Source of the DNA: Duganella sp. BuS-21
Lineage (GTDB): Bacteria; Pseudomonadota; Gammaproteobacteria; Burkholderiales; Burkholderiaceae_D
Direction of reading: 5' to 3'
Length of the DNA stretch: 64,000 nucleotides
Assembly: GCA_041874725.1 (NCBI GenBank)
Contig: CP097466.1
Location: 1,054,001 to 1,118,000 of the forward strand
Below, in pieces: positions 38,973-46,479 of the stretch. Both the position numbers and the translations under genes were made by a program. Every line of letters begins with the position of its first letter. The first letter of the stretch is position 1. Below the pieces are notes generated by a model that was not told the DNA's origin, did no database searches, and saw only the letters and a list, made by a program, of their open reading frames with translations.

Positions 38973-38994
38973 CGGGGCCGCAAGGCCCCGTTTT
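38973..38994 (+). terminator. rho-independent terminator after the DEAD-box helicase gene
   Basis: Stem CGGGGCC with loop GCAA pairs with GGCCCCG and is followed by TTTT, 23 bases after the stop codon. It separates the helicase from the TnsB-like unit. Confidence 0.85.
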
Positions 38995-39071
38995 CATTTG
39001 GAGGCGTTGCACCTGCGCGACTGCACAGTTCCTGTGCTGCATTGCACCAAAACAAAGCTTGAGAAAGATCA

Positions 39072-39144
39072 AATAGTGACACGTGACTATTGTTGTCATA
39101 GTAGAAGGCCGCTGGCCCGTTTATTGCATATGTGATAGCACATC
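39072..39144. promoter_or_regulatory. two operator-like dyads upstream of the TnsB-like operon
   Basis: AATAGT and ACTATT flank GACACGTG at 39072-39091. A second dyad, ATGTG-ATAG-CACAT, is at 39131-39144. Both lie in the 210-bp AT-richer gap between the helicase terminator and the 46-aa gene. They could be regulator sites or relics of transposon ends. No repeated TnsB-type binding sites were recognised. Confidence 0.35.
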
Positions 39145-39204
39145 GTGATAAAAGGCGGCAACGAAGCGCCTTAACCTGGAGACGTTGGGCATGGGAGCTT
39201 GGCA

Positions 39205-39345
39205 ATGACTTCATTCAGGAAGCTGTGGACGACCTTGGTTGACGCGATTACGCCGCAGGCAGCACGCGCGGTTCCTCCCGCAGACCGGCATGCCATTCAT
39301 GTCGATACGCGGCCTTTCACTGTGGCTCATTTCCAGGAGCGGTAA
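39205..39345 (+). CDS. 46-aa protein leading the TnsB-like operon
   Basis: The ATG has GGGAG eight bases upstream. The product begins MTSFRKLWTTLVDAITPQAA and ends VAHFQER. It is not recognisably TnsA, TnsC or any domain I know. The TAA stop is directly followed by the ATG of the TnsB-like gene, whose ribosome binding site (AGGAG) lies in the last codons of this one, so translation is probably coupled. It may be a leader needed to load ribosomes on the next gene or a small partner protein. Confidence 0.5.
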   Translation: MTSFRKLWTTLVDAITPQAARAVPPADRHAIHVDTRPFTVAHFQER

Positions 39346-41169
39346 ATGCTGCTGCGGAACGATTTGTTGCAATATACGGATCCGTCGCCGCGCACTGTCC
39401 GCATTCTGTGGATCGCTCCCGACCAAAACCACGCCTATGCCTTCGACGTGGCGACCTCTTCGGTCGATGTGGAGCTGATCCAGCTGCCGGCGGTGCTCGC
39501 CGACATTCGTGCCGGCCGCGCCAGCGTGCTGCCGGCCGATCCCTATCTGATGGTAGTCAGCCAGGAGCTGCTGCCAGCTAAACATCTGCAACTGCGCGCG
39601 CGGGCCTGGGAGATCATCGAAGGCCTGGTGGCGCAGGAACCGCAGATCTACGAGCCGCGCCTGCGCGGCCAGCTGGTGGCGCAGGCCACGGCGCGGCACC
39701 AGGTGTCGCATCCGACCATTTACCGCTACCTGCGCCGCTACTGGCAGCGCGGACAGACGCCCAACGCGCTGCTGCCCGATTACAGCAATTCCGGCGCGCG
39801 CGGCAAGGTGCGCCAGTCCTCGGACGGCGTGAAGCGCGGCAGGCCGCGTAAAAACGTCGCTGACGCCGGCGCGGGCCTGAACGCGGACGAGGACATCCGC
39901 CGCACCTTCCGCGTCGCCACGGCCCGCTACGCGGCCGCCAACGCCAAGTTCTCGCGCCTGGGCGCCTACCAGCAAATGCTGGGCGATTTCTTTGTCGAGC
40001 GCCGCATCGAGCCGGACTCCGGCCGTGTGCTGAGCATGCCGGCTGCGGTGCAGGCCTTGCCGACCTTCGGTCAATTCAATTATTGGCTGGACCATGACGA
40101 CGACCGGCCGCCGGAAGTGGGCCGCCGCGCGCCCAGCGTGCTGCCGGCGTCGCTGCAGGCCGCGCCGCCGGCGCTGCCCGAGGGCGCGCTGCCGCCGGGC
40201 CGTCCCGGCGCCGGCTTCTATCTGGACGCGGTGCGCGCCGAGGTGCAGCTGGTGTCGCGTGCGGACCGCAACCAGGCCATCGGCCGGCCGCTGGTCTACC
40301 TGGTGACCGATTGCTTCAGCCGCATGGTGTGCGGCGTCTACGTGGCCCTGGGCGAGGTGCAGTGGACGCACGGCATGCTGGCGCTGGCCAATTGCAGCGC
40401 CGACAAGCAGCGCTTCAGCCAGCAGTTCGGCCGCCGCATCGAGGCCGAGCAGTGGCCCTGCCGCCATCTGCCCGAAGCGCTGTTCGCCAACGCGGCGCTG
40501 ACGCTGGGCTGGAGCGGCGACACGCTGCTCAACAACTTCAACCTGCGCTGCGTGGCGGTGGACAACGGCCCGGACGACTGGCGCGCGGTGCTGGAAAAGC
40601 GCTTTCGCCTGCTGGCGCCGGCGCTGCCCGGTGCGCCGGGGCGGCTCGACGGCGTGCTCGATATCGAGCAATTCACCCGCATCGTGATCGACTGCATCTT
40701 GTACTACAACAGCCGGCAGCAATCCGCCCACGCCAGCGGCGCCACCCCGCTGCAGTTGTGGGACTGGGGCCGCGAGCATCGCGGCGGCGGCTTGAAGATC
40801 TATCCCGAGCACCTGATCCGCTGCAGCCTGATGCCGGTGACCCAGGCCACCGTCACCAGCCAGGGCATCGCGCTGTTCGACAGTCTTTATTGCTGCGCGC
40901 GCGCCATCGACGAGCGTTGGTTCGAGCGTGCGCGCACGCGCGGCCCGTGGCCGGTGCGGGTGGCCTACGACCCGTCCAATCTGGACACGATCTACTTCCT
41001 CGATCCCGCCGCGCCGCTGCAGTTCCACGCCTGCCACCTGGCCGACGCCAGCACGGCGCACCAGCACCTGTCGGCGGCCGAGATCGCGCACCTGCCACGC
41101 ACCCAAATGGCGCTTGCGGCAACGGCGCTACGTAGCACTACGCAGAACCCGCGCAGCCTGGTCGCCTGA
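39346..41169 (+). CDS. TnsB/Mu-type DDE integrase-like protein, probably inactive
   Basis: A 607-aa protein with the layout of Tn7-like TnsB. The N-terminal part (RILWIAPDQNHAYAFDV) and helix-turn-helix region (HQVSHPTIYRYLRRYWQRG) precede an RNase H-like core: Asp294 in FYLDAV, then GRPLVYLVTDCFSRMVCGVYV and ALANCSADKQRF. The usual LaDRGEl motif reads LFANAAL, putting Asn382 where the second catalytic Asp should be. The final Glu is kept at 417 (VLEKRF). The C-terminal Mu-type barrel is recognisable (TPLQLWDWG, VRVAYDPSNLDTIYF). No TnsA, TnsC, TniQ or target-site gene is adjacent. It could be a domesticated DNA-binding protein. Confidence 0.8.
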   Translation: MLLRNDLLQYTDPSPRTVRILWIAPDQNHAYAFDVATSSVDVELIQLPAVLADIRAGRASVLPADPYLMVVSQELLPAKHLQLRARAWEIIEGLVAQEPQIYEPRLRGQLVAQATARHQVSHPTIYRYLRRYWQRGQTPNALLPDYSNSGARGKVRQSSDGVKRGRPRKNVADAGAGLNADEDIRRTFRVATARYAAANAKFSRLGAYQQMLGDFFVERRIEPDSGRVLSMPAAVQALPTFGQFNYWLDHDDDRPPEVGRRAPSVLPASLQAAPPALPEGALPPGRPGAGFYLDAVRAEVQLVSRADRNQAIGRPLVYLVTDCFSRMVCGVYVALGEVQWTHGMLALANCSADKQRFSQQFGRRIEAEQWPCRHLPEALFANAALTLGWSGDTLLNNFNLRCVAVDNGPDDWRAVLEKRFRLLAPALPGAPGRLDGVLDIEQFTRIVIDCILYYNSRQQSAHASGATPLQLWDWGREHRGGGLKIYPEHLIRCSLMPVTQATVTSQGIALFDSLYCCARAIDERWFERARTRGPWPVRVAYDPSNLDTIYFLDPAAPLQFHACHLADASTAHQHLSAAEIAHLPRTQMALAATALRSTTQNPRSLVA

Positions 41170-41187
41170 CCGCACTTCAAATAAAGT

Positions 41188-41257
41188 TTGTTCACCGCCG
41201 CCGTCCGCACACGCATTTTTGTGTGCCTGAACGGCGGCGTGGGCATGCGCGAACAAA
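41188..41257. other. extended stem-loop region downstream of the TnsB-like gene
   Basis: Nested inverted repeats: TTTGTTC/GAACAAA at the outer edges, CGCCGCCGT/ACGGCGGCG inside, and GCACAC/GTGTGC at the centre around a T-run. It could be a terminator-like RNA structure for the TnsB-like operon or a relic of a transposon end. Confidence 0.5.
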
Positions 41258-41412
41258 CATTGTTTTATATTGTTTATCCGGTTTCGTAAGGGAAGCACTG
41301 AGCGCCGAAACTTCTTTATTTTCCAGCCATGCCGTGGCACGCCAATTGCTAGACAGGAACTATGGGATCGCAAGTCGCCCAAGGATCTTTCAGCAGACTG
41401 GTGAGGAAGCAG

Positions 41413-43020
41413 ATGGATAGTAAAACGGTAAAACCATATAAATCGTTTATCTCATTTACGAGGAGGGACTTCCTGTATCGCGCGGCGGCTGTCGGCGGCA
41501 CGGGCTTGCTGTTGAATACCATGAGCGCATGGGGCATGGGCATCGAGTCCACCGCCTCCGCGCCGCCGGCCCTGAGCGGCAGCGGCAAGGGCAAGAAGGT
41601 GCTGATCCTGGGCGCCGGACTGGCCGGACTGACCGCCGCCTTCGAGCTGGAGAAGCTGGGCTACAAGGTGCAGATCCTGGAAGCGCGCGCCTTTGCCGGC
41701 GGCCGCTGCCAGACCGCCCGCAAGGGCTTCAGCCTGACCGAACTCGGTGGCGAGAAGCAGACCTGCGCCTTCGACGACGGCCACTACATCAACCATGGCC
41801 CATGGCGCATTCCGCTGCACCATCAGTCGACGCTGCACTACACCAAGCTGTTCGAGGTGCCGCTGGAGGTGATGGTCAACGATAACGACCATGCCTATGT
41901 CTACTCCGAGAACGCCGGGCCGTTCGCCGGCAAGCGCATGCGCGTCAAGGAGATCAAGGCCGACATGCGCGGCCACGTGGCCGAGCTGCTGGCCAAGTCG
42001 GTCAAGAGCCATGCGCTGGACCAGGAACTCACCGCCGACGACCAGCGCCTGCTGCTCGACTACCTGGCGCGCGAAGGCGCGCTGACGCCGGGTGAACTGC
42101 AATACAAGGGCCGCAGCGGCCGTGGTTTCGCGGTCAATCCGGGCGCCGGCCTGTCGCCGGGACCGGGCACGCCGTCCGATCCGCTGGGCTTCAAGGACCT
42201 GTTGGCCTCGAAGCTGGGCAATGTCTACACCGCCGTGCATGACTTTCCGATGCAGGCCACCATGTTCCAGCCGGTCGGCGGCATGGACGCGATTCCGAAG
42301 GCGTTTGAAAAACGCGTCGGCAAGAACATCCGCTACAAGGCGGAAGTGCAGACCCTGCGCCAGGACGGCAAGGGCGTGACGGTGACCTACAAGGACACCG
42401 GCACCAACCAGCTCGGCACCATCAAGGCCGACTACTGCCTGTGCACCATTCCCCTGTCGGTGCTGCGTCAGCTCGACACCGATTTTTCGGACAAATTCAA
42501 GCAGGCCGTGGCTTCCGTGGCGTATGCGCCGGTGGGCAAGATCGGCCTGCAGATGAAGCGCCGCTTCTGGGAAGAGGACGACCATATCTACGGTGGTCAC
42601 ATCATGACCGACCTGAAAGGCATCAACACCATTTCCGTGCCGTCGTACGGCTTCCAGAAGAAGAAGGGCGTGCTGCTCGGCTATTACCAGTATCAGACGC
42701 AGGCAATTGAAATCAGCGCCTTGTCGCCGCAGGAGCGCGCGCAGTTCGCGCTGGAGGCCGGACAGAAGATCTTCCCGCAGTACAAGGAGAGCTTCGAGAC
42801 GGCGTTCTCGGTGGCCTGGCACCGCGTGCAGTACAACCTGGGCGGCTGGGCCGAGTGGACCGACAAGACCCGCGCCGCCGCCTACCCGACGCTGGTGGAG
42901 GGCGAGGGCCGCGTGCTGCTGGCCGGCGAGCACCTGAGCTACCTGACCGGCTGGCAGGCCGGCGCCATCGAATCGGCGTGGCAGCAGATCGCCAAGATCC
43001 ATGAAAGGGCCAGTGCATGA
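41413..43020 (+). CDS. Tat-exported flavin amine oxidase (L-amino-acid oxidase-like)
   Basis: FAD-dependent amine oxidase or dehydrogenase, 535 aa from the chosen start. The Tat signal SFTRRDFLYRAA is followed by a hydrophobic stretch. FAD binding is seen in VLILGAGLAGLTAAFELEKLG (Gly67-Ala-Gly69-Leu-Ala-Gly72), then the Glu and GGR motif (LEARAFAGGRCQT). The C-terminal FAD loop is GRVLLAGEHLSYLTGWQAGAIESA. Family members oxidise an amine to an imine. The start at 41413 has AGGA at good spacing; an in-frame ATG at 41362 has poorer spacing. The stop overlaps the cytochrome c start (ATGA), so electrons probably go to that cytochrome. The substrate is unknown. Confidence 0.88.
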   Translation: MDSKTVKPYKSFISFTRRDFLYRAAAVGGTGLLLNTMSAWGMGIESTASAPPALSGSGKGKKVLILGAGLAGLTAAFELEKLGYKVQILEARAFAGGRCQTARKGFSLTELGGEKQTCAFDDGHYINHGPWRIPLHHQSTLHYTKLFEVPLEVMVNDNDHAYVYSENAGPFAGKRMRVKEIKADMRGHVAELLAKSVKSHALDQELTADDQRLLLDYLAREGALTPGELQYKGRSGRGFAVNPGAGLSPGPGTPSDPLGFKDLLASKLGNVYTAVHDFPMQATMFQPVGGMDAIPKAFEKRVGKNIRYKAEVQTLRQDGKGVTVTYKDTGTNQLGTIKADYCLCTIPLSVLRQLDTDFSDKFKQAVASVAYAPVGKIGLQMKRRFWEEDDHIYGGHIMTDLKGINTISVPSYGFQKKKGVLLGYYQYQTQAIEISALSPQERAQFALEAGQKIFPQYKESFETAFSVAWHRVQYNLGGWAEWTDKTRAAAYPTLVEGEGRVLLAGEHLSYLTGWQAGAIESAWQQIAKIHERASA

Positions 43021-43436
43021 AAGTCGTATTGATCAAGGCGGCGATGGTGGTGGTGGCGGGGTTCGCGGCGGCGGCCAGTTCGCCCCTGCGGGCGCAAGAG
43101 CCGGCCATCGACGGCAAGACGCTGTTCCAGAAAAACTGCGCGGCCTGCCACATGGCCAGCGGCAAAGGCATCCCGGGCGCCTTCCCGGCGCTGGCCGGCA
43201 GCAAATTCGTGCAGGGCAAGGGCACCGAGGTGGCCGCCGTCCTGCTCAAGGGACGCGGCGGCATGCCGGACTTCAGCGACTCGCTGAGCGACCGCGATAT
43301 CGCCACCGTGCTGACGTTCGTGCGCTCGAACTGGGGCAACAAGGCCGATGGCTTGAGCGAGGCGGACGTGGGCTCGCTGCGGACCACGCTGGGCGTCGAC
43401 CCGTTCGGCAATTCCATGATGTCGAATAAACATTGA
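43017..43436 (+). CDS. exported monohaem c-type cytochrome
   Basis: A 139-aa class I cytochrome c. The signal peptide (MKVVLIKAAMVVVAGFAAAASSPLRA) is followed by haem attachment at Cys41-Ala-Ala-Cys44-His45 (NCAACHMASGKG). The sixth ligand is probably Met83 in GRGGMPDF. It overlaps the amine oxidase stop by four bases, so the two are made together. It most likely accepts electrons from the amine oxidase in the periplasm and passes them to a terminal oxidase, making the flavoenzyme a dehydrogenase rather than a peroxide-producing oxidase. That partnership is inferred from the gene overlap. Confidence 0.9.
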   Translation: MKVVLIKAAMVVVAGFAAAASSPLRAQEPAIDGKTLFQKNCAACHMASGKGIPGAFPALAGSKFVQGKGTEVAAVLLKGRGGMPDFSDSLSDRDIATVLTFVRSNWGNKADGLSEADVGSLRTTLGVDPFGNSMMSNKH

Positions 43437-43464
43437 AACAACACTGAAAACATTGAGAGAGACC

Positions 43465-43980
43465 ATGACCATGAAAAAAGCACTTGCCGCCCTGTCGATC
43501 TGCGCCGCCTTCGGTAGCGCCCACGCCGCACCCAAGGCCGACATCGTGCGCCACAAGATTCCGGGGTCGGACTTCCCGATCGCGCTGGCGGTGACGATTC
43601 CGCCGACGGCCACCATCCACTTCATCAGCGGCCAGGTGCCGGCGGTGGTCAACAAGGACGTGGCGGGCGACACGCTGGAAGCCTTCGGCGACACCAAGAC
43701 CCAGACCGAGACGGTGCTCAAGAAGATCAAGGAAATCCTGCAGGGCATGAAGCTGGACATGTCGGACGTGGTGAAGATGCAGGTGTTCCTGGTCGGCGAT
43801 CCGGCCAAGGGCGGCAAGGCCGATACCAAGGGCTTCATGGAGGCTTATACCCAGTACTTCGGCGCCACCGCCCAACCAAGCCCCCAGCTCAACCTGCCGG
43901 CGCGCGCCGTGGTGCAGGTGGCGGGATTGAGCAATCCGGGCTGGCTGGTGGAGATCGAGGTGGTCGCCGCTAAAAAATAA
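43465..43980 (+). CDS. exported RidA/YjgF family protein (imine deaminase-like)
   Basis: A 171-aa protein. The RidA fold is usually cytosolic, but here it follows a signal peptide (MKKALAALSICAAFGSAHA). Family features are visible: FISGQVPAVVN, the TQTETVLKKIKEILQGMKLDMSDVVKMQVFL helix-strand unit, and the catalytic Arg (Arg147, LPARAVVQV) followed by VEIEVVA. RidA enzymes hydrolyse reactive imines to ketones and ammonia. Placed after a Tat-exported amine oxidase, it would plausibly clear the imine product in the periplasm. ATGs at 43465 and 43471 are both possible starts. Confidence 0.85.
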   Translation: MTMKKALAALSICAAFGSAHAAPKADIVRHKIPGSDFPIALAVTIPPTATIHFISGQVPAVVNKDVAGDTLEAFGDTKTQTETVLKKIKEILQGMKLDMSDVVKMQVFLVGDPAKGGKADTKGFMEAYTQYFGATAQPSPQLNLPARAVVQVAGLSNPGWLVEIEVVAAKK

Positions 43981-44034: not shown

Positions 44035-46479
44035 ATGCATAAGGCCACACTAAAGATCGGCGTCGCAGCCGTGTTGTCCACGCTGGCATTCGGTGTTTTT
44101 GCTGAAGATGACGTTGCCGCAGCGGCCGACGCGGGCGCCACGCCCAACGTCGGCGCGGTGATCGTGACGGGTACGCGCACCAGCGGCATCAAGGTGGAAA
44201 ACAGCGCATCGCCGATCCAGGTGCTCGACGCCGCATCGCTGCAGCGCACCGGCCAGCCGGACCTGATCCAGGCGCTGGCGCAGAATCTGCCGTCGTTTAC
44301 GGCGCAGGCCTTCGGCGGCGACACCGCCAACCTGACGCTGTCGGCCCGCCTGCGCGGCCTGAGCCCGAACAACACCCTGGTCCTGATCAACGGCAAGCGC
44401 CGTCACGGCACCTCGAATCTGGCGGTGCTGGGCGGACCATACCAGGGCGGCGCAGCGGCCGACCTGAACTTCATTCCCGTTTCGGCCATCGACCACATTG
44501 AAGTGCTGCAGGACGGCGCGGCCGCGCAATACGGCTCGGACGCGATCGCCGGCGTGGTCAACATCATCCTGAAATCGAACAACCACGGCGGCACCGCCAC
44601 CGCCAACGCCGGCGGCTACGTCGACGGCGGCGGCCGCACCCTGGGCGCCTCGGCCAACATCGGCACCGAGCCGTTCGCGGACGCCTTCCTGAGCCTGACG
44701 GCCGAATCGAAGTATCACGGCTACAGCGACCGTGGCGGCATCGACCCGCGCGTGATCACGCCGGCCAACCAGGCCGCTTATCCCGGCATGTTCCAGCAGC
44801 CCGGCTACCCGCACGTCAACCACATTTCTGGCGACGCGCAGTACCACCTGAGTATCTTCGCCGCCAACTTCGGCTGGGACATCTCGCCGGACACGCAGCT
44901 GTACGCGATCGCCACCGCCGGCCGCAAGGAAGCGCGCGCGTTCGAGAACTATCGCCTGCCGAGCCGTCTGCCGAAGATCTATCCGACCGGCTTCTCGCCG
45001 AAGGAAACCATCCGCGAGGAAGACATGGGCCTGACCGCCGGCCTCAAAGGCAAGGCCGCCGGCTGGAACCTGGACCTGAGCACCACCTACGGCCGCGACA
45101 AGTCGCGCATCGGCGTCGAAGACTCGGGCAACGTCTCGCTGTTCAACGACACCGGCTACACGCCGACCGTGTTCAAGGCCGGCACCTTCATCGCCAGCCA
45201 GTTCACCACCACGCTGGAGGCGAGCAAGGAGTTCGACATCGGCTGGAGCAAGCCGCTGAACATCGCCGGCGGTATCGAGCACCGCATCGACAAGTACGAG
45301 ATCGAAGCCGGCGACGCCGCTTCGCGCTACAAGGAAGGTTCGCAGTCCTATCCTGGCTTCTCGCTGACCGACGCCGGCAGCCATCGCCGCACCAACCAGG
45401 CGGCCTACATCGACTTCGCCGGCAGCCCGATCACCGACCTGACGGTCGACCTGGCCGGCCGCTATGAGCACTTCAGCGATTTCGGCAACGCCAAGGTCGG
45501 CAAGCTGACCAGCCGCTATGACTTCTCGCCGGTGGTGGCGCTGCGCGGCACCTTCTCCAACGGCTTCCGCGCGCCGACCCTGGCCGAGTCCTACTACTCG
45601 GCCACCAACGTCGGCCCGACCTCGGCCTTCGTGCAGCTGGCGCCGAATTCGGCCGGCGCCAAGCTGGTGGGCGTGGATGGTTTGAAGCCTGAGCGTTCGA
45701 CCAACTTCAGCATGGGCCTGGTGCTCAACCCGGTCAGCAACGTGGCCGTGACGATGGACGTGTACCAGATCTCGATCCGCGACCGCATCGTCGGTTCGGG
45801 CGCCTTGTACGGTTCGGGCGGCGGCACCAACTCGCCGGCCGTGATCGCGGCGATCAAGGCCAACGGCAATGTCCTCGATAGCACCGTCAGCCAGACCGGT
45901 ATCAACATCTTCTCGAATGCGGTCAACACCCGCAGCCGGGGCCTGGAGTTCGTCACCACGGTGAATTCCAACTACGGCACCGGCGGCAAGGTGGACTGGT
46001 CGATCGCGGCCAACTACAACAAGGTCGAAGTCACCAAGATCAACCAGGCGCCGGCGCAGTTGCTGCCGCAAACGCTGCTCGACAAGACCGCGATTTCGGA
46101 CCTGGAAACGGCTTCGCCGAAGATGCGCGTCAACCTGGGCGCGTTGTGGAAGATCGGCAACTGGACCGTCAACCTGCGTGAAGCGATCTATGGCAAGGCG
46201 TCGGAGTACGGCAGCGAAGACGGCTCGGTGTATCACCTGACGGAGATCAAACCGAAGGCCATCACCGATCTGGAAGTGGGCTACAAGATCAGCAACGCGT
46301 GGTCGGTGGCGGTGGGTGCGAACAACCTGTTCAACATCTATCCTAACGGCGTCAATCCTGCGCTGCTGGCCGACCAGCGCGCAGCGGGTGACAACGCGGC
46401 GGTCCACGTGCTGGCGACGTTCTCGCCGTTCGGTATCAACGGCGGCTACTACTACGCACGGGCCAACTACAAGTTCTAA
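44035..46479 (+). CDS. TonB-dependent outer-membrane receptor
   Basis: An 814-aa receptor. It has a signal peptide (cleavage after FGVFA), VGAVIVTGTRTSG as TonB-box region and plug start, the plug motif LVLINGKRRHG and VLQDGAAAQYGSDAIAGVVNIIL, and a barrel ending YYYARANYKF. It begins 54 bases after the RidA gene and is followed by a terminator, so it is probably the last gene of the amine oxidase operon. It likely imports the amine or amino-acid derivative handled by the upstream enzymes. The ligand itself cannot be read from the sequence. It resembles the receptor at 17721 in plug region and size. Confidence 0.93.
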   Translation: MHKATLKIGVAAVLSTLAFGVFAEDDVAAAADAGATPNVGAVIVTGTRTSGIKVENSASPIQVLDAASLQRTGQPDLIQALAQNLPSFTAQAFGGDTANLTLSARLRGLSPNNTLVLINGKRRHGTSNLAVLGGPYQGGAAADLNFIPVSAIDHIEVLQDGAAAQYGSDAIAGVVNIILKSNNHGGTATANAGGYVDGGGRTLGASANIGTEPFADAFLSLTAESKYHGYSDRGGIDPRVITPANQAAYPGMFQQPGYPHVNHISGDAQYHLSIFAANFGWDISPDTQLYAIATAGRKEARAFENYRLPSRLPKIYPTGFSPKETIREEDMGLTAGLKGKAAGWNLDLSTTYGRDKSRIGVEDSGNVSLFNDTGYTPTVFKAGTFIASQFTTTLEASKEFDIGWSKPLNIAGGIEHRIDKYEIEAGDAASRYKEGSQSYPGFSLTDAGSHRRTNQAAYIDFAGSPITDLTVDLAGRYEHFSDFGNAKVGKLTSRYDFSPVVALRGTFSNGFRAPTLAESYYSATNVGPTSAFVQLAPNSAGAKLVGVDGLKPERSTNFSMGLVLNPVSNVAVTMDVYQISIRDRIVGSGALYGSGGGTNSPAVIAAIKANGNVLDSTVSQTGINIFSNAVNTRSRGLEFVTTVNSNYGTGGKVDWSIAANYNKVEVTKINQAPAQLLPQTLLDKTAISDLETASPKMRVNLGALWKIGNWTVNLREAIYGKASEYGSEDGSVYHLTEIKPKAITDLEVGYKISNAWSVAVGANNLFNIYPNGVNPALLADQRAAGDNAAVHVLATFSPFGINGGYYYARANYKF

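What the first reader, a model, noticed from the sequence alone, without database searches (positions are those of the whole stretch)
39205..41169. Solitary TnsB-like integrase with a predicted broken DDE triad, coupled to a 46-aa protein
Seen: a 607-aa protein with the full TnsB/Mu-type layout, preceded by a 46-codon gene whose stop abuts its ATG. Asp294 and Glu417 align with the first and third catalytic residues, but the LaDRGEl motif reads LFANAAL, so the middle Asp appears to be Asn382. No TnsA, TnsC, TniQ, cargo or paired ends are visible, the codon use is host-like, and the gene has its own promoter gap with dyads. Inference: this may be a domesticated transposase kept for DNA binding, with the small protein as leader or partner.
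Basis: partly seen in the sequence, partly recalled or inferred. Interest (0 to 1): 0.7.

Follow-up and report, generated by a model that had tools for sequence, protein, structure and literature searches.

The report
Dead transposase turned gene regulator
A bacterial gene that once cut and pasted a Tn7-type jumping element has lost its cutting site, is preserved by selection, and sits next to an amine-oxidase operon whose promoter region carries the jumping element's type of recognition site, so it has most likely become a gene regulator.

Summary
Confirmed and extended. Window 39346-41169 encodes a 607-aa TnsB homologue (Tn7 TnsB, E 4.8e-68) with N382 at the second catalytic Asp. None of 120 homologues keeps D-D-E; 47 of 47 TnsB-type outgroup proteins aligned do. 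The gene keeps one locus (26 of 26 genus loci examined) under purifying selection, strongest in the DNA-binding core. In sister genera only the DNA-binding part (240-265 aa) survives.

New: (1) the TnsB-like gene and the downstream amine oxidase-cytochrome c-RidA-TonB genes each have a sigma-54 promoter, the only two exact matches in 64 kb. (2) Between them lie copies of AAYAAWGT, the core of the roughly 20-bp-spaced arrays I find beside Tn7-like TnsB genes. (3) These sites occur at 59 of 59 examined loci with both genes, 0 of 12 with the TnsB-like gene alone, 0 of 6 with a related oxidase alone.

Best reading: a domesticated, catalytically dead TnsB that regulates a sigma-54 amine-oxidase operon through co-opted transposon-end-type sites. 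Binding and direction of control are inferred. The 46-aa leader protein is real but occurs only in part of one clade. Nine searches of an open-access library listed no TnsB-derived regulator.

The parts
38974..38994 (+). GC hairpin plus T-run after the helicase gene (terminator-like); separates it from the next unit
   Evidence: read by eye; conserved in the alignment; inference
39044..39049 (+). GCACCA element upstream of the sigma-54 promoter of the TnsB-like gene; possible activator half-site
   Evidence: 36 of 41 loci have GCACCA 45-92 bp before the -24 element (mononucleotide shuffles 6%); identity of the activator not known
39113..39128 (+). sigma-54 (-24/-12) promoter P1: TGGCCCGTTTATTGCA
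   Evidence: exact match; 2 in the window, expected 0.08; at most 2 mismatches in 40 of 41 loci
39205..39345 (+). 46-aa leader protein gene (orf46), stop abutting the ATG of the TnsB-like gene
   Evidence: tblastn finds it in 10 of 26 other genus loci; in these and the window, lengths 43-48 aa, dN/dS 0.35, stop overlaps the next ATG by 1 base in 9 of 11
39346..41169 (+). TnsB-like protein (TnsBL), 607 aa: N-terminal DNA-binding region (about 1-250), RNase H-like domain with D294/N382/E417 (about 287-430), Mu-type C-terminal domain
41180..41187 (+). TnsB-type binding-site core AATAAAGT (in CAAATAAAGTTTGTTCAC)
   Evidence: same core in Tn7-like arrays
41257..41264 (-). second TnsB-type core, variant AACAATGT, opposite orientation, 78 bp from the -24 element of P2
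41335..41350 (+). sigma-54 promoter P2 of the amine-oxidase genes: TGGCACGCCAATTGCT
   Evidence: exact match; at most 2 mismatches in 31 of 32 loci and in 42 of 42 oxidase loci
41362..43020 (+). flavin amine oxidase (MAO) with a Tat-like N-terminus; the true start is probably the ATG at 41413, because P2 places the transcript start at about 41362 (inference)
   Evidence: Pfam Amino_oxidase E 1.2e-51
43017..43436 (+). cytochrome c of the cluster
   Evidence: Pfam
43453..43980 (+). RidA-family protein of the cluster
   Evidence: Pfam Ribonuc_L-PSP
44035..46479 (+). TonB-dependent receptor of the cluster
   Evidence: Pfam

Best explanation
TnsBL is a domesticated TnsB. Its catalytic triad is gone, and the retained N-terminal DNA-binding region still reads the ancestral type of transposon-end site (core AATAAAGT). 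Copies of that site, tandem in some loci and inverted in others, now lie about 30-200 bp upstream of the sigma-54 promoter of the adjacent amine oxidase-cytochrome c-RidA-TonB genes, which is where enhancer sites of sigma-54 promoters usually lie (recalled). TnsBL itself has a sigma-54 promoter. I therefore propose a small regulatory circuit: an activator of sigma-54 RNA polymerase (unidentified, perhaps the nitrogen regulator NtrC) switches on TnsBL, and TnsBL binds the sites and modulates the oxidase operon. Shown by sequence: loss of the triad, fixed locus, selection, both promoter motifs, the sites, and their co-occurrence with both genes. Inferred: that the cluster is one operon, binding, and control of transcription. 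I favour a positive or architectural role (coherent feed-forward, about 55%) over repression (about 45%).
For: Triad: 0 of 120 homologues D-D-E against 14 of 14 TnsB/TniA-type ORFs from genomes of the same family and 33 of 33 wider relatives. Locus: 26 of 26 fetched genus loci keep the helicase, 25 of 26 keep MAO. The 14 sister-genus homologues fetched consist of the DNA-binding part only; six of these loci precede the same MAO cluster without the helicase. Selection: dN/dS 0.18 in residues 61-175, 0.40 in 287-430. Sites: 63 AAYAAWGT in 31 of 31 intergenic regions, dinucleotide-shuffle mean 1.1, maximum 5; upstream of TnsBL 1 against 0.9 expected; MAO coding control 0. Both genes: 59 of 59 loci (53 of the 54 MAO-positive genus genomes, G094 not examined, plus 6 other-genus loci). 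TnsBL only: 0 of 12 loci. Oxidase only: 0 of 6 loci. Site identity: arrays of at least two copies at 18-24 bp in 12 of 33 wider Tn7-type loci (shuffles: mean 0.1 of 33, maximum 1) and in 4 of 18 others (shuffles 0) (positions). Tandem-pair scan of 9 whole genomes: 5 hits, of which 3 at this locus, 1 about 7.5 kb from a Tn7-like TnsB gene, 1 low-complexity; reversed-pattern control 0. Sigma-54.
Against: No binding or expression data. Loci share ancestry, so counts are not independent events. The closest intact relative found (Thiomonas, 45% identity) shows no such array in the 9.9 kb held, nor do 21 of 33 wider loci (Thiomonas included) with the exact core; three more do when one mismatch is allowed. 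Four genus genomes and seven g36 genomes keep TnsBL without MAO and without any site within 3 kb, so it has another role there or is in decline. The window itself has two cores in opposite orientation, one of them the AACAATGT variant, and no tandem pair; tandem pairs occur in 8 of 31 regions. Compared with a distant Tn7-type TnsB (L119) the helix-turn-helix part is 20 of 45 identical and the RNase H part 56 of 144, so across that distance the DNA-binding part is not clearly the better kept. In own-genome and genus-wide scans the single motif also occurs elsewhere (13 against 3 control hits; 36 against 10 control hits in 25 genomes).
Confidence: 0.78

Rival explanations
1. The AAYAAWGT sites belong to another, unlinked regulator of the oxidase genes; TnsBL is merely a conserved neighbour whose function lies elsewhere.
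For: TnsBL persists without the oxidase and without sites at 12 examined loci, so it can have functions unrelated to these sites.
Against: Six oxidase loci (59-68% identity to the window's) without TnsBL have 0 sites, although L184 and L185 keep a sigma-54 match with 1 mismatch and L186 one with 2. The core and the roughly 20-bp spacing match Tn7-like arrays. Linkage to the oxidase holds in genera where the left flank is different.
Confidence: 0.12
2. TnsBL is a dominant-negative defence: a dead TnsB that occupies the ends of incoming Tn7-like elements and blocks their transposition.
For: Tn7-like elements in the same family carry the same site core, and a dead end-binding protein could poison them.
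Against: Does not explain the sites at the oxidase promoter (59 of 59 loci), the sigma-54 promoter, or the linkage to the oxidase. Some genomes carry TnsBL and a Tn7-type TnsB together (e.g. G033, G010).
Confidence: 0.06
3. A variant of the best explanation: TnsBL acts as a repressor of the oxidase genes (incoherent feed-forward, or a brake that blocks the sigma-54 activator's sites).
For: Transposases commonly repress promoters in their own ends (recalled); the sites lie where a sigma-54 activator would bind.
Against: No site overlaps the -24/-12 element (sites 32-199 bp upstream of it in 31 regions); TnsBL has the same promoter class as its target.
Confidence: 0.35
4. An ordinary decaying transposase remnant.
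For: Triad lost, no TnsA/C, and two genus genomes have the frame split behind the DNA-binding region (G027, G068).
Against: A single open frame in 55 of 58 genus genomes (the third exception, G063, is cut by contig ends), dN/dS 0.30 overall, fixed locus, conserved promoter.
Confidence: 0.02

Closest known systems
TnsB of Tn7 and Tn7-like elements (PDB 7pik)
   Same: Domain order, fold (Foldseek E 2.1e-39) and recognition-site core
   Different: Catalytic triad lost, no TnsA/TnsC/TniQ beside it, no flanking end pair, fixed locus, sigma-54 promoter, sites at a metabolic promoter
TldR, nuclease-dead TnpB repressors (PMC13418256, passages seen)
   Same: Transposon enzyme inactivated, DNA recognition kept, strongly associated with non-transposon genes, regulator
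   Different: TldR is RNA-guided and derives from TnpB; TnsBL is a DDE-type transposase with helix-turn-helix DNA recognition
Ner/SfsB and other regulators taken from mobile elements (PMC8987985, passages seen)
   Same: A mobile-element protein regulating a host metabolic operon
   Different: Ner was already a regulator in phage Mu; TnsB is the recombinase itself
Phage Mu repressor c and MuA (recalled, not tested)
   Same: A transposase-type DNA-binding domain used at operators
   Different: Stays within the phage; not a host operon regulator
Bacterial enhancer-binding proteins of sigma-54 (NtrC class; features recalled)
   Same: Sites in the enhancer position of sigma-54 promoters
   Different: TnsBL has no AAA+ domain in the Pfam scan, so it should not itself open the sigma-54 complex

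Membership tests
TnsB transposase (Tn7 family), active | D-D-E catalytic triad | tested here: not met
   window D-N-E; 0 of 120 homologues D-D-E; 14 of 14 and 33 of 33 outgroup proteins D-D-E
TnsB transposase (Tn7 family), active | adjacent TnsA, TnsC, TniQ/TnsD | tested here: not met
   six neighbours by Pfam; helicase in 26 of 26 and oxidase in 25 of 26 genus loci
TnsB transposase (Tn7 family), active | paired end arrays flanking an element | tested here: not met
   sites only between TnsBL and MAO; 3 AAYAAWGT in 71 kb downstream of TonB in 31 loci; upstream of TnsBL 1 in 41 regions
TnsB by descent | TnsB fold and conserved helix-turn-helix region | tested here: met
TnsB by descent | recognises the TnsB site | tested here: inconclusive
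   the core is present at the proposed target and in Tn7-like arrays, but binding was not measured
Domesticated transposase | loss of catalysis, fixed locus, purifying selection | tested here: met
Transcription regulator of the adjacent operon | binds the operon's control region and alters transcription | not testable with these tools
   only co-occurrence of sites with both genes is shown
Sigma-54 transcription units | -24/-12 element at conserved position | tested here: met
   (motif only; dependence on sigma-54 not measured)
Bacterial enhancer-binding protein | AAA+ sigma-54 interaction domain | tested here: not met
   Pfam scan lists no such domain at E up to 1

The most novel reading that the evidence does not exclude
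A transposase and the type of site at its element's ends were domesticated together: the dead TnsB became a transcription factor, and end-type sites became its operator array at a sigma-54 metabolic promoter. In sister lineages the catalytic half was then discarded, leaving a dedicated DNA-binding regulator of about 250 residues.
Probability: 0.65. Interest if true: 0.85.

Novelty: new variant of a known kind. Interest (0 to 1): 0.78.

Why it matters
Exapted mobile-element regulators are known in bacteria, but my searches listed none made from a DDE transposase together with its own end-type sites. Here the steps appear side by side: active element, dead full-length protein, DNA-binding domain alone. 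That makes the birth of a transcription factor from a transposase directly testable in harmless soil bacteria. It also suggests that some genes annotated 'Mu transposase C-terminal domain-containing protein' are regulators.

Tried and rejected
Considered and rejected: (a) an element end downstream of the cluster: only 3 AAYAAWGT in 71 kb over 31 loci. (b) A second conserved target: AAYAAAGTYTGT in 25 genus genomes (15 with TnsBL, 10 without) gave 36 hits, reversed-pattern control 10. Twelve lie at this locus in 11 genomes, all TnsBL-positive. Thirteen are one orthologous site by DNA similarity; in the window's genome it lies inside the coding start of an ORF that looks like an alpha/beta hydrolase (by eye). 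It is also present in G014, which lacks TnsBL, so I treat it as a coding coincidence. The other 11 were not shown to be shared; four of them had no locus to compare. (c) Sites at the TnsBL promoter itself: none beyond chance. (d) NtrC as the activator: the GCACCA element is conserved but I could not assign it. (e) An apparent dyad behind TnsBL in some relatives looks like a terminator. (f) In one search the oxidase promoter of L047 scored 4 mismatches and was dropped, with a corrected start, gave 0 mismatches and one site. In one search the minus-strand loci were read in the wrong orientation; one search repeats L172, L175, L176, L179, L181 and L182-L187 correctly. (g) Papers: 9 searches of the open-access library showed no title on a TnsB-derived regulator in their capped lists; most subscription papers are not held. 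Pfam PF27135 and PF27165, printed, did not appear in my Pfam scan, so what they describe was not seen.

Full report

The whole family is dead. The protein search found 295 relatives among 7994 scored candidates and listed 120. In an alignment of all 120 listed with 14 TnsB/TniA-type ORFs from genomes of the same bacterial family (from 15 loci; L118 gave no ORF of 400 aa or more that matched), position 294 is D in 90, 382 is D in 11 (N in 50) and 417 is E in 72 of 120. No sequence has all three, whereas 14 of 14 outgroup ORFs do. A wider set of 33 relatives taken from the 80 loci is D-D-E in 33 of 33; L296, L303, L304, L312 and L314 of that list were left out. Within the family the helix-turn-helix region is nearly invariant.

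Inheritance and selection. Of 74 genus genomes, the window's included, 58 have the TnsB-like gene (60 matches, two of which, G005 and G009, are weak and not this family). In 26 fetched genus loci the DEAD helicase is upstream in 26 and the amine oxidase downstream in 25. Median dN/dS over 55 pairs of 11 loci is 0.30 overall, 0.18 in residues 61-175, 0.40 in 287-430 and 0.66 in the linker. In the other genera sampled (g28, g36, g43) the 14 homologues fetched are 240-265 aa and mostly end just after the conserved TFGQFNYW stretch before the RNase H domain. In a tree of the N-terminal region, full and short forms group apart from seven Tn7-type TnsBs, with weak support (0.54); the short forms are not monophyletic there.

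Linkage to the amine-oxidase genes. Six of the short homologues (L103, L108, L113-L116) lie directly before the same oxidase-cytochrome c-RidA-TonB cluster, without the helicase. The constant partner is therefore the oxidase cluster. In the genus, 54 of 74 genomes have the orthologous oxidase (74% identity or more; one further match in G014 is a 40% paralogue), and all 54 have the TnsB-like gene; four more have the TnsB-like gene alone (G017, G062, G080, G089). Related oxidase genes (59-68% identity) without it exist in other genera.

Sigma-54 promoters. TGGCMCGNNNNTTGCW has two exact matches in the 64-kb window, expected 0.08: 39113-39128 before orf46-TnsBL and 41335-41350 before the oxidase. 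With up to 2 mismatches it is found before TnsBL in 40 of 41 loci (L108 has 3) and before the oxidase in 31 of 32 (mononucleotide-shuffled regions: 6.5% and about 5%). With a corrected start the exception, L047, has an exact match, and 42 of 42 oxidase loci have at most 2 mismatches. P1 lies 47-67 bp before the ATG in one set of lineages, 87-147 bp in others, and 230-241 bp where orf46 is present (248 in L056, where orf46 was not detected). A GCACCA element lies 45-92 bp before P1 in 36 of 41 loci (shuffles 6%).

TnsB-type sites. Between the TnsBL stop and the oxidase promoter, AAYAAWGT occurs 63 times in 31 of 31 regions (10,388 bp; dinucleotide shuffles mean 1.1, maximum 5). Upstream of TnsBL it occurs once in 41 regions (0.9 expected) and in oxidase coding controls never. 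All copies lie 32-199 bp before the -24 element; 8 of 31 regions have a direct pair 18-22 bp apart, and 13 of 31 an inverted copy at 74-80 bp. The same core recurs near Tn7-like TnsB genes: three copies at 20-21 bp in L119, two at 20 bp in L118 (7.5 kb from a TnsB gene that is itself in two pieces), four irregularly spaced in L059, among 15 loci scanned; two at 20 bp, 69 and 89 bp before tnsA, in an E. coli plasmid element, but none in two Azospirillum loci. Arrays of at least two at 18-24 bp occur in 12 of 33 wider relatives, 10 of them with at least three. Dinucleotide shuffles of the same loci give a mean of 0.1 of 33 (maximum 1); for the 18 other loci 4 against 0. Allowing one mismatch adds L276, L277 and L283 of seven re-examined (no shuffle control for that). 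Published work describes such arrays at Tn7-like ends (PMC8649781, passages seen).

Dependence on both genes. Both genes adjacent: 59 of 59 loci have at least one site (53 of the 54 genus genomes with the oxidase, G094 not examined, plus 6 loci of other genera). TnsBL alone: 0 of 12 loci within 3 kb (the stretch held for L221 is shorter; L112 lies in a genome that has the pair elsewhere). Oxidase alone: 0 of 6 loci in 5 genomes within 700 bp; their best sigma-54 matches have 2, 3, 1, 1, 2 and 3 mismatches (L182-L187). A scan of nine whole genomes for the tandem pair gave five hits: three at this locus, one about 7.5 kb from a Tn7-like TnsB gene, one in low-complexity DNA; the reversed-pattern control gave none. 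In the window's own genome 13 single AAYAAWGTNTG sites exist (control 3); two are here, and only these have an exact sigma-54 site within 700 bp (one other, L154, has a one-mismatch match). Ancestry is shared, so these are not independent events.

Mechanism. I conclude that TnsBL most likely binds these sites and controls the oxidase genes. TnsBL has no AAA+ domain in the Pfam scan, so an enhancer-binding protein should still be required; TnsBL would help, bridge or block it. The direction of control is open. The oxidase suggests nitrogen scavenging from amines (inference).

The 46-aa protein. tblastn finds it in 10 of 26 other genus loci (L031-L037, L039, L040, L055), not in the rest, including six loci (L038, L041-L043, L053, L054) that fall in the same clade of the tree. 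In these 10 and the window it is 43-48 aa long, with a conserved start and GGAG, dN/dS 0.35, and a stop overlapping the TnsBL ATG by one base in 9 of 11 (abutting in the window, one base apart in L032). It is a real, lineage-specific, coupled gene and not a general part of the system.

Novelty. Regulators exapted from mobile elements exist: TldR (PMC13418256, passages) and Ner/SfsB (PMC8987985, passages). Nine searches listed none derived from TnsB; their lists are capped and the library is open-access only. I call it a new variant of a known kind.

Noticed in passing
L104-L107, L109-L111 (genus g36): The short DNA-binding-only homologue stands without the oxidase cluster and without any AAYAAWGT site within 3 kb; in the loci whose ORFs I printed (L104, L105, L107, L109, L111) it lies near a phasin-like and an acyltransferase-like or ion-channel-like gene, named by eye. 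Its target there is unknown.
   Followed up: partly
L112 and L113 (genome G218): One genome has two short homologues, one beside the oxidase cluster and one in the other setting.
   Followed up: partly
window 39129-39151: A TGTGATAGCACA-like dyad directly downstream of promoter P1, near the expected transcript start, shared by close relatives; possible operator.
   Followed up: no
window 41362 against 41413: The longest ORF start of the oxidase coincides with the predicted transcript start; the ATG at 41413 before the Tat-like motif is the likelier start.
   Followed up: no
L054 (G027) and L234 (G068): The TnsB-like frame is split after the DNA-binding region (G027) or near residue 343 (G068), leaving the N-terminal part open; real truncation or sequencing error not resolved.
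   Followed up: no
L182-L187: Related oxidase genes of other genera without the TnsB-like gene; L184-L186 keep a sigma-54-like promoter within about 150 bp.
   Followed up: partly
L267 (Thiomonas delicata): Closest intact relative found: a TnsA-TnsB-TnsC-TnsD-like gene set whose TnsB (45% identity) begins almost like TnsBL (the neighbours were named by eye from their sequences).
   Followed up: partly
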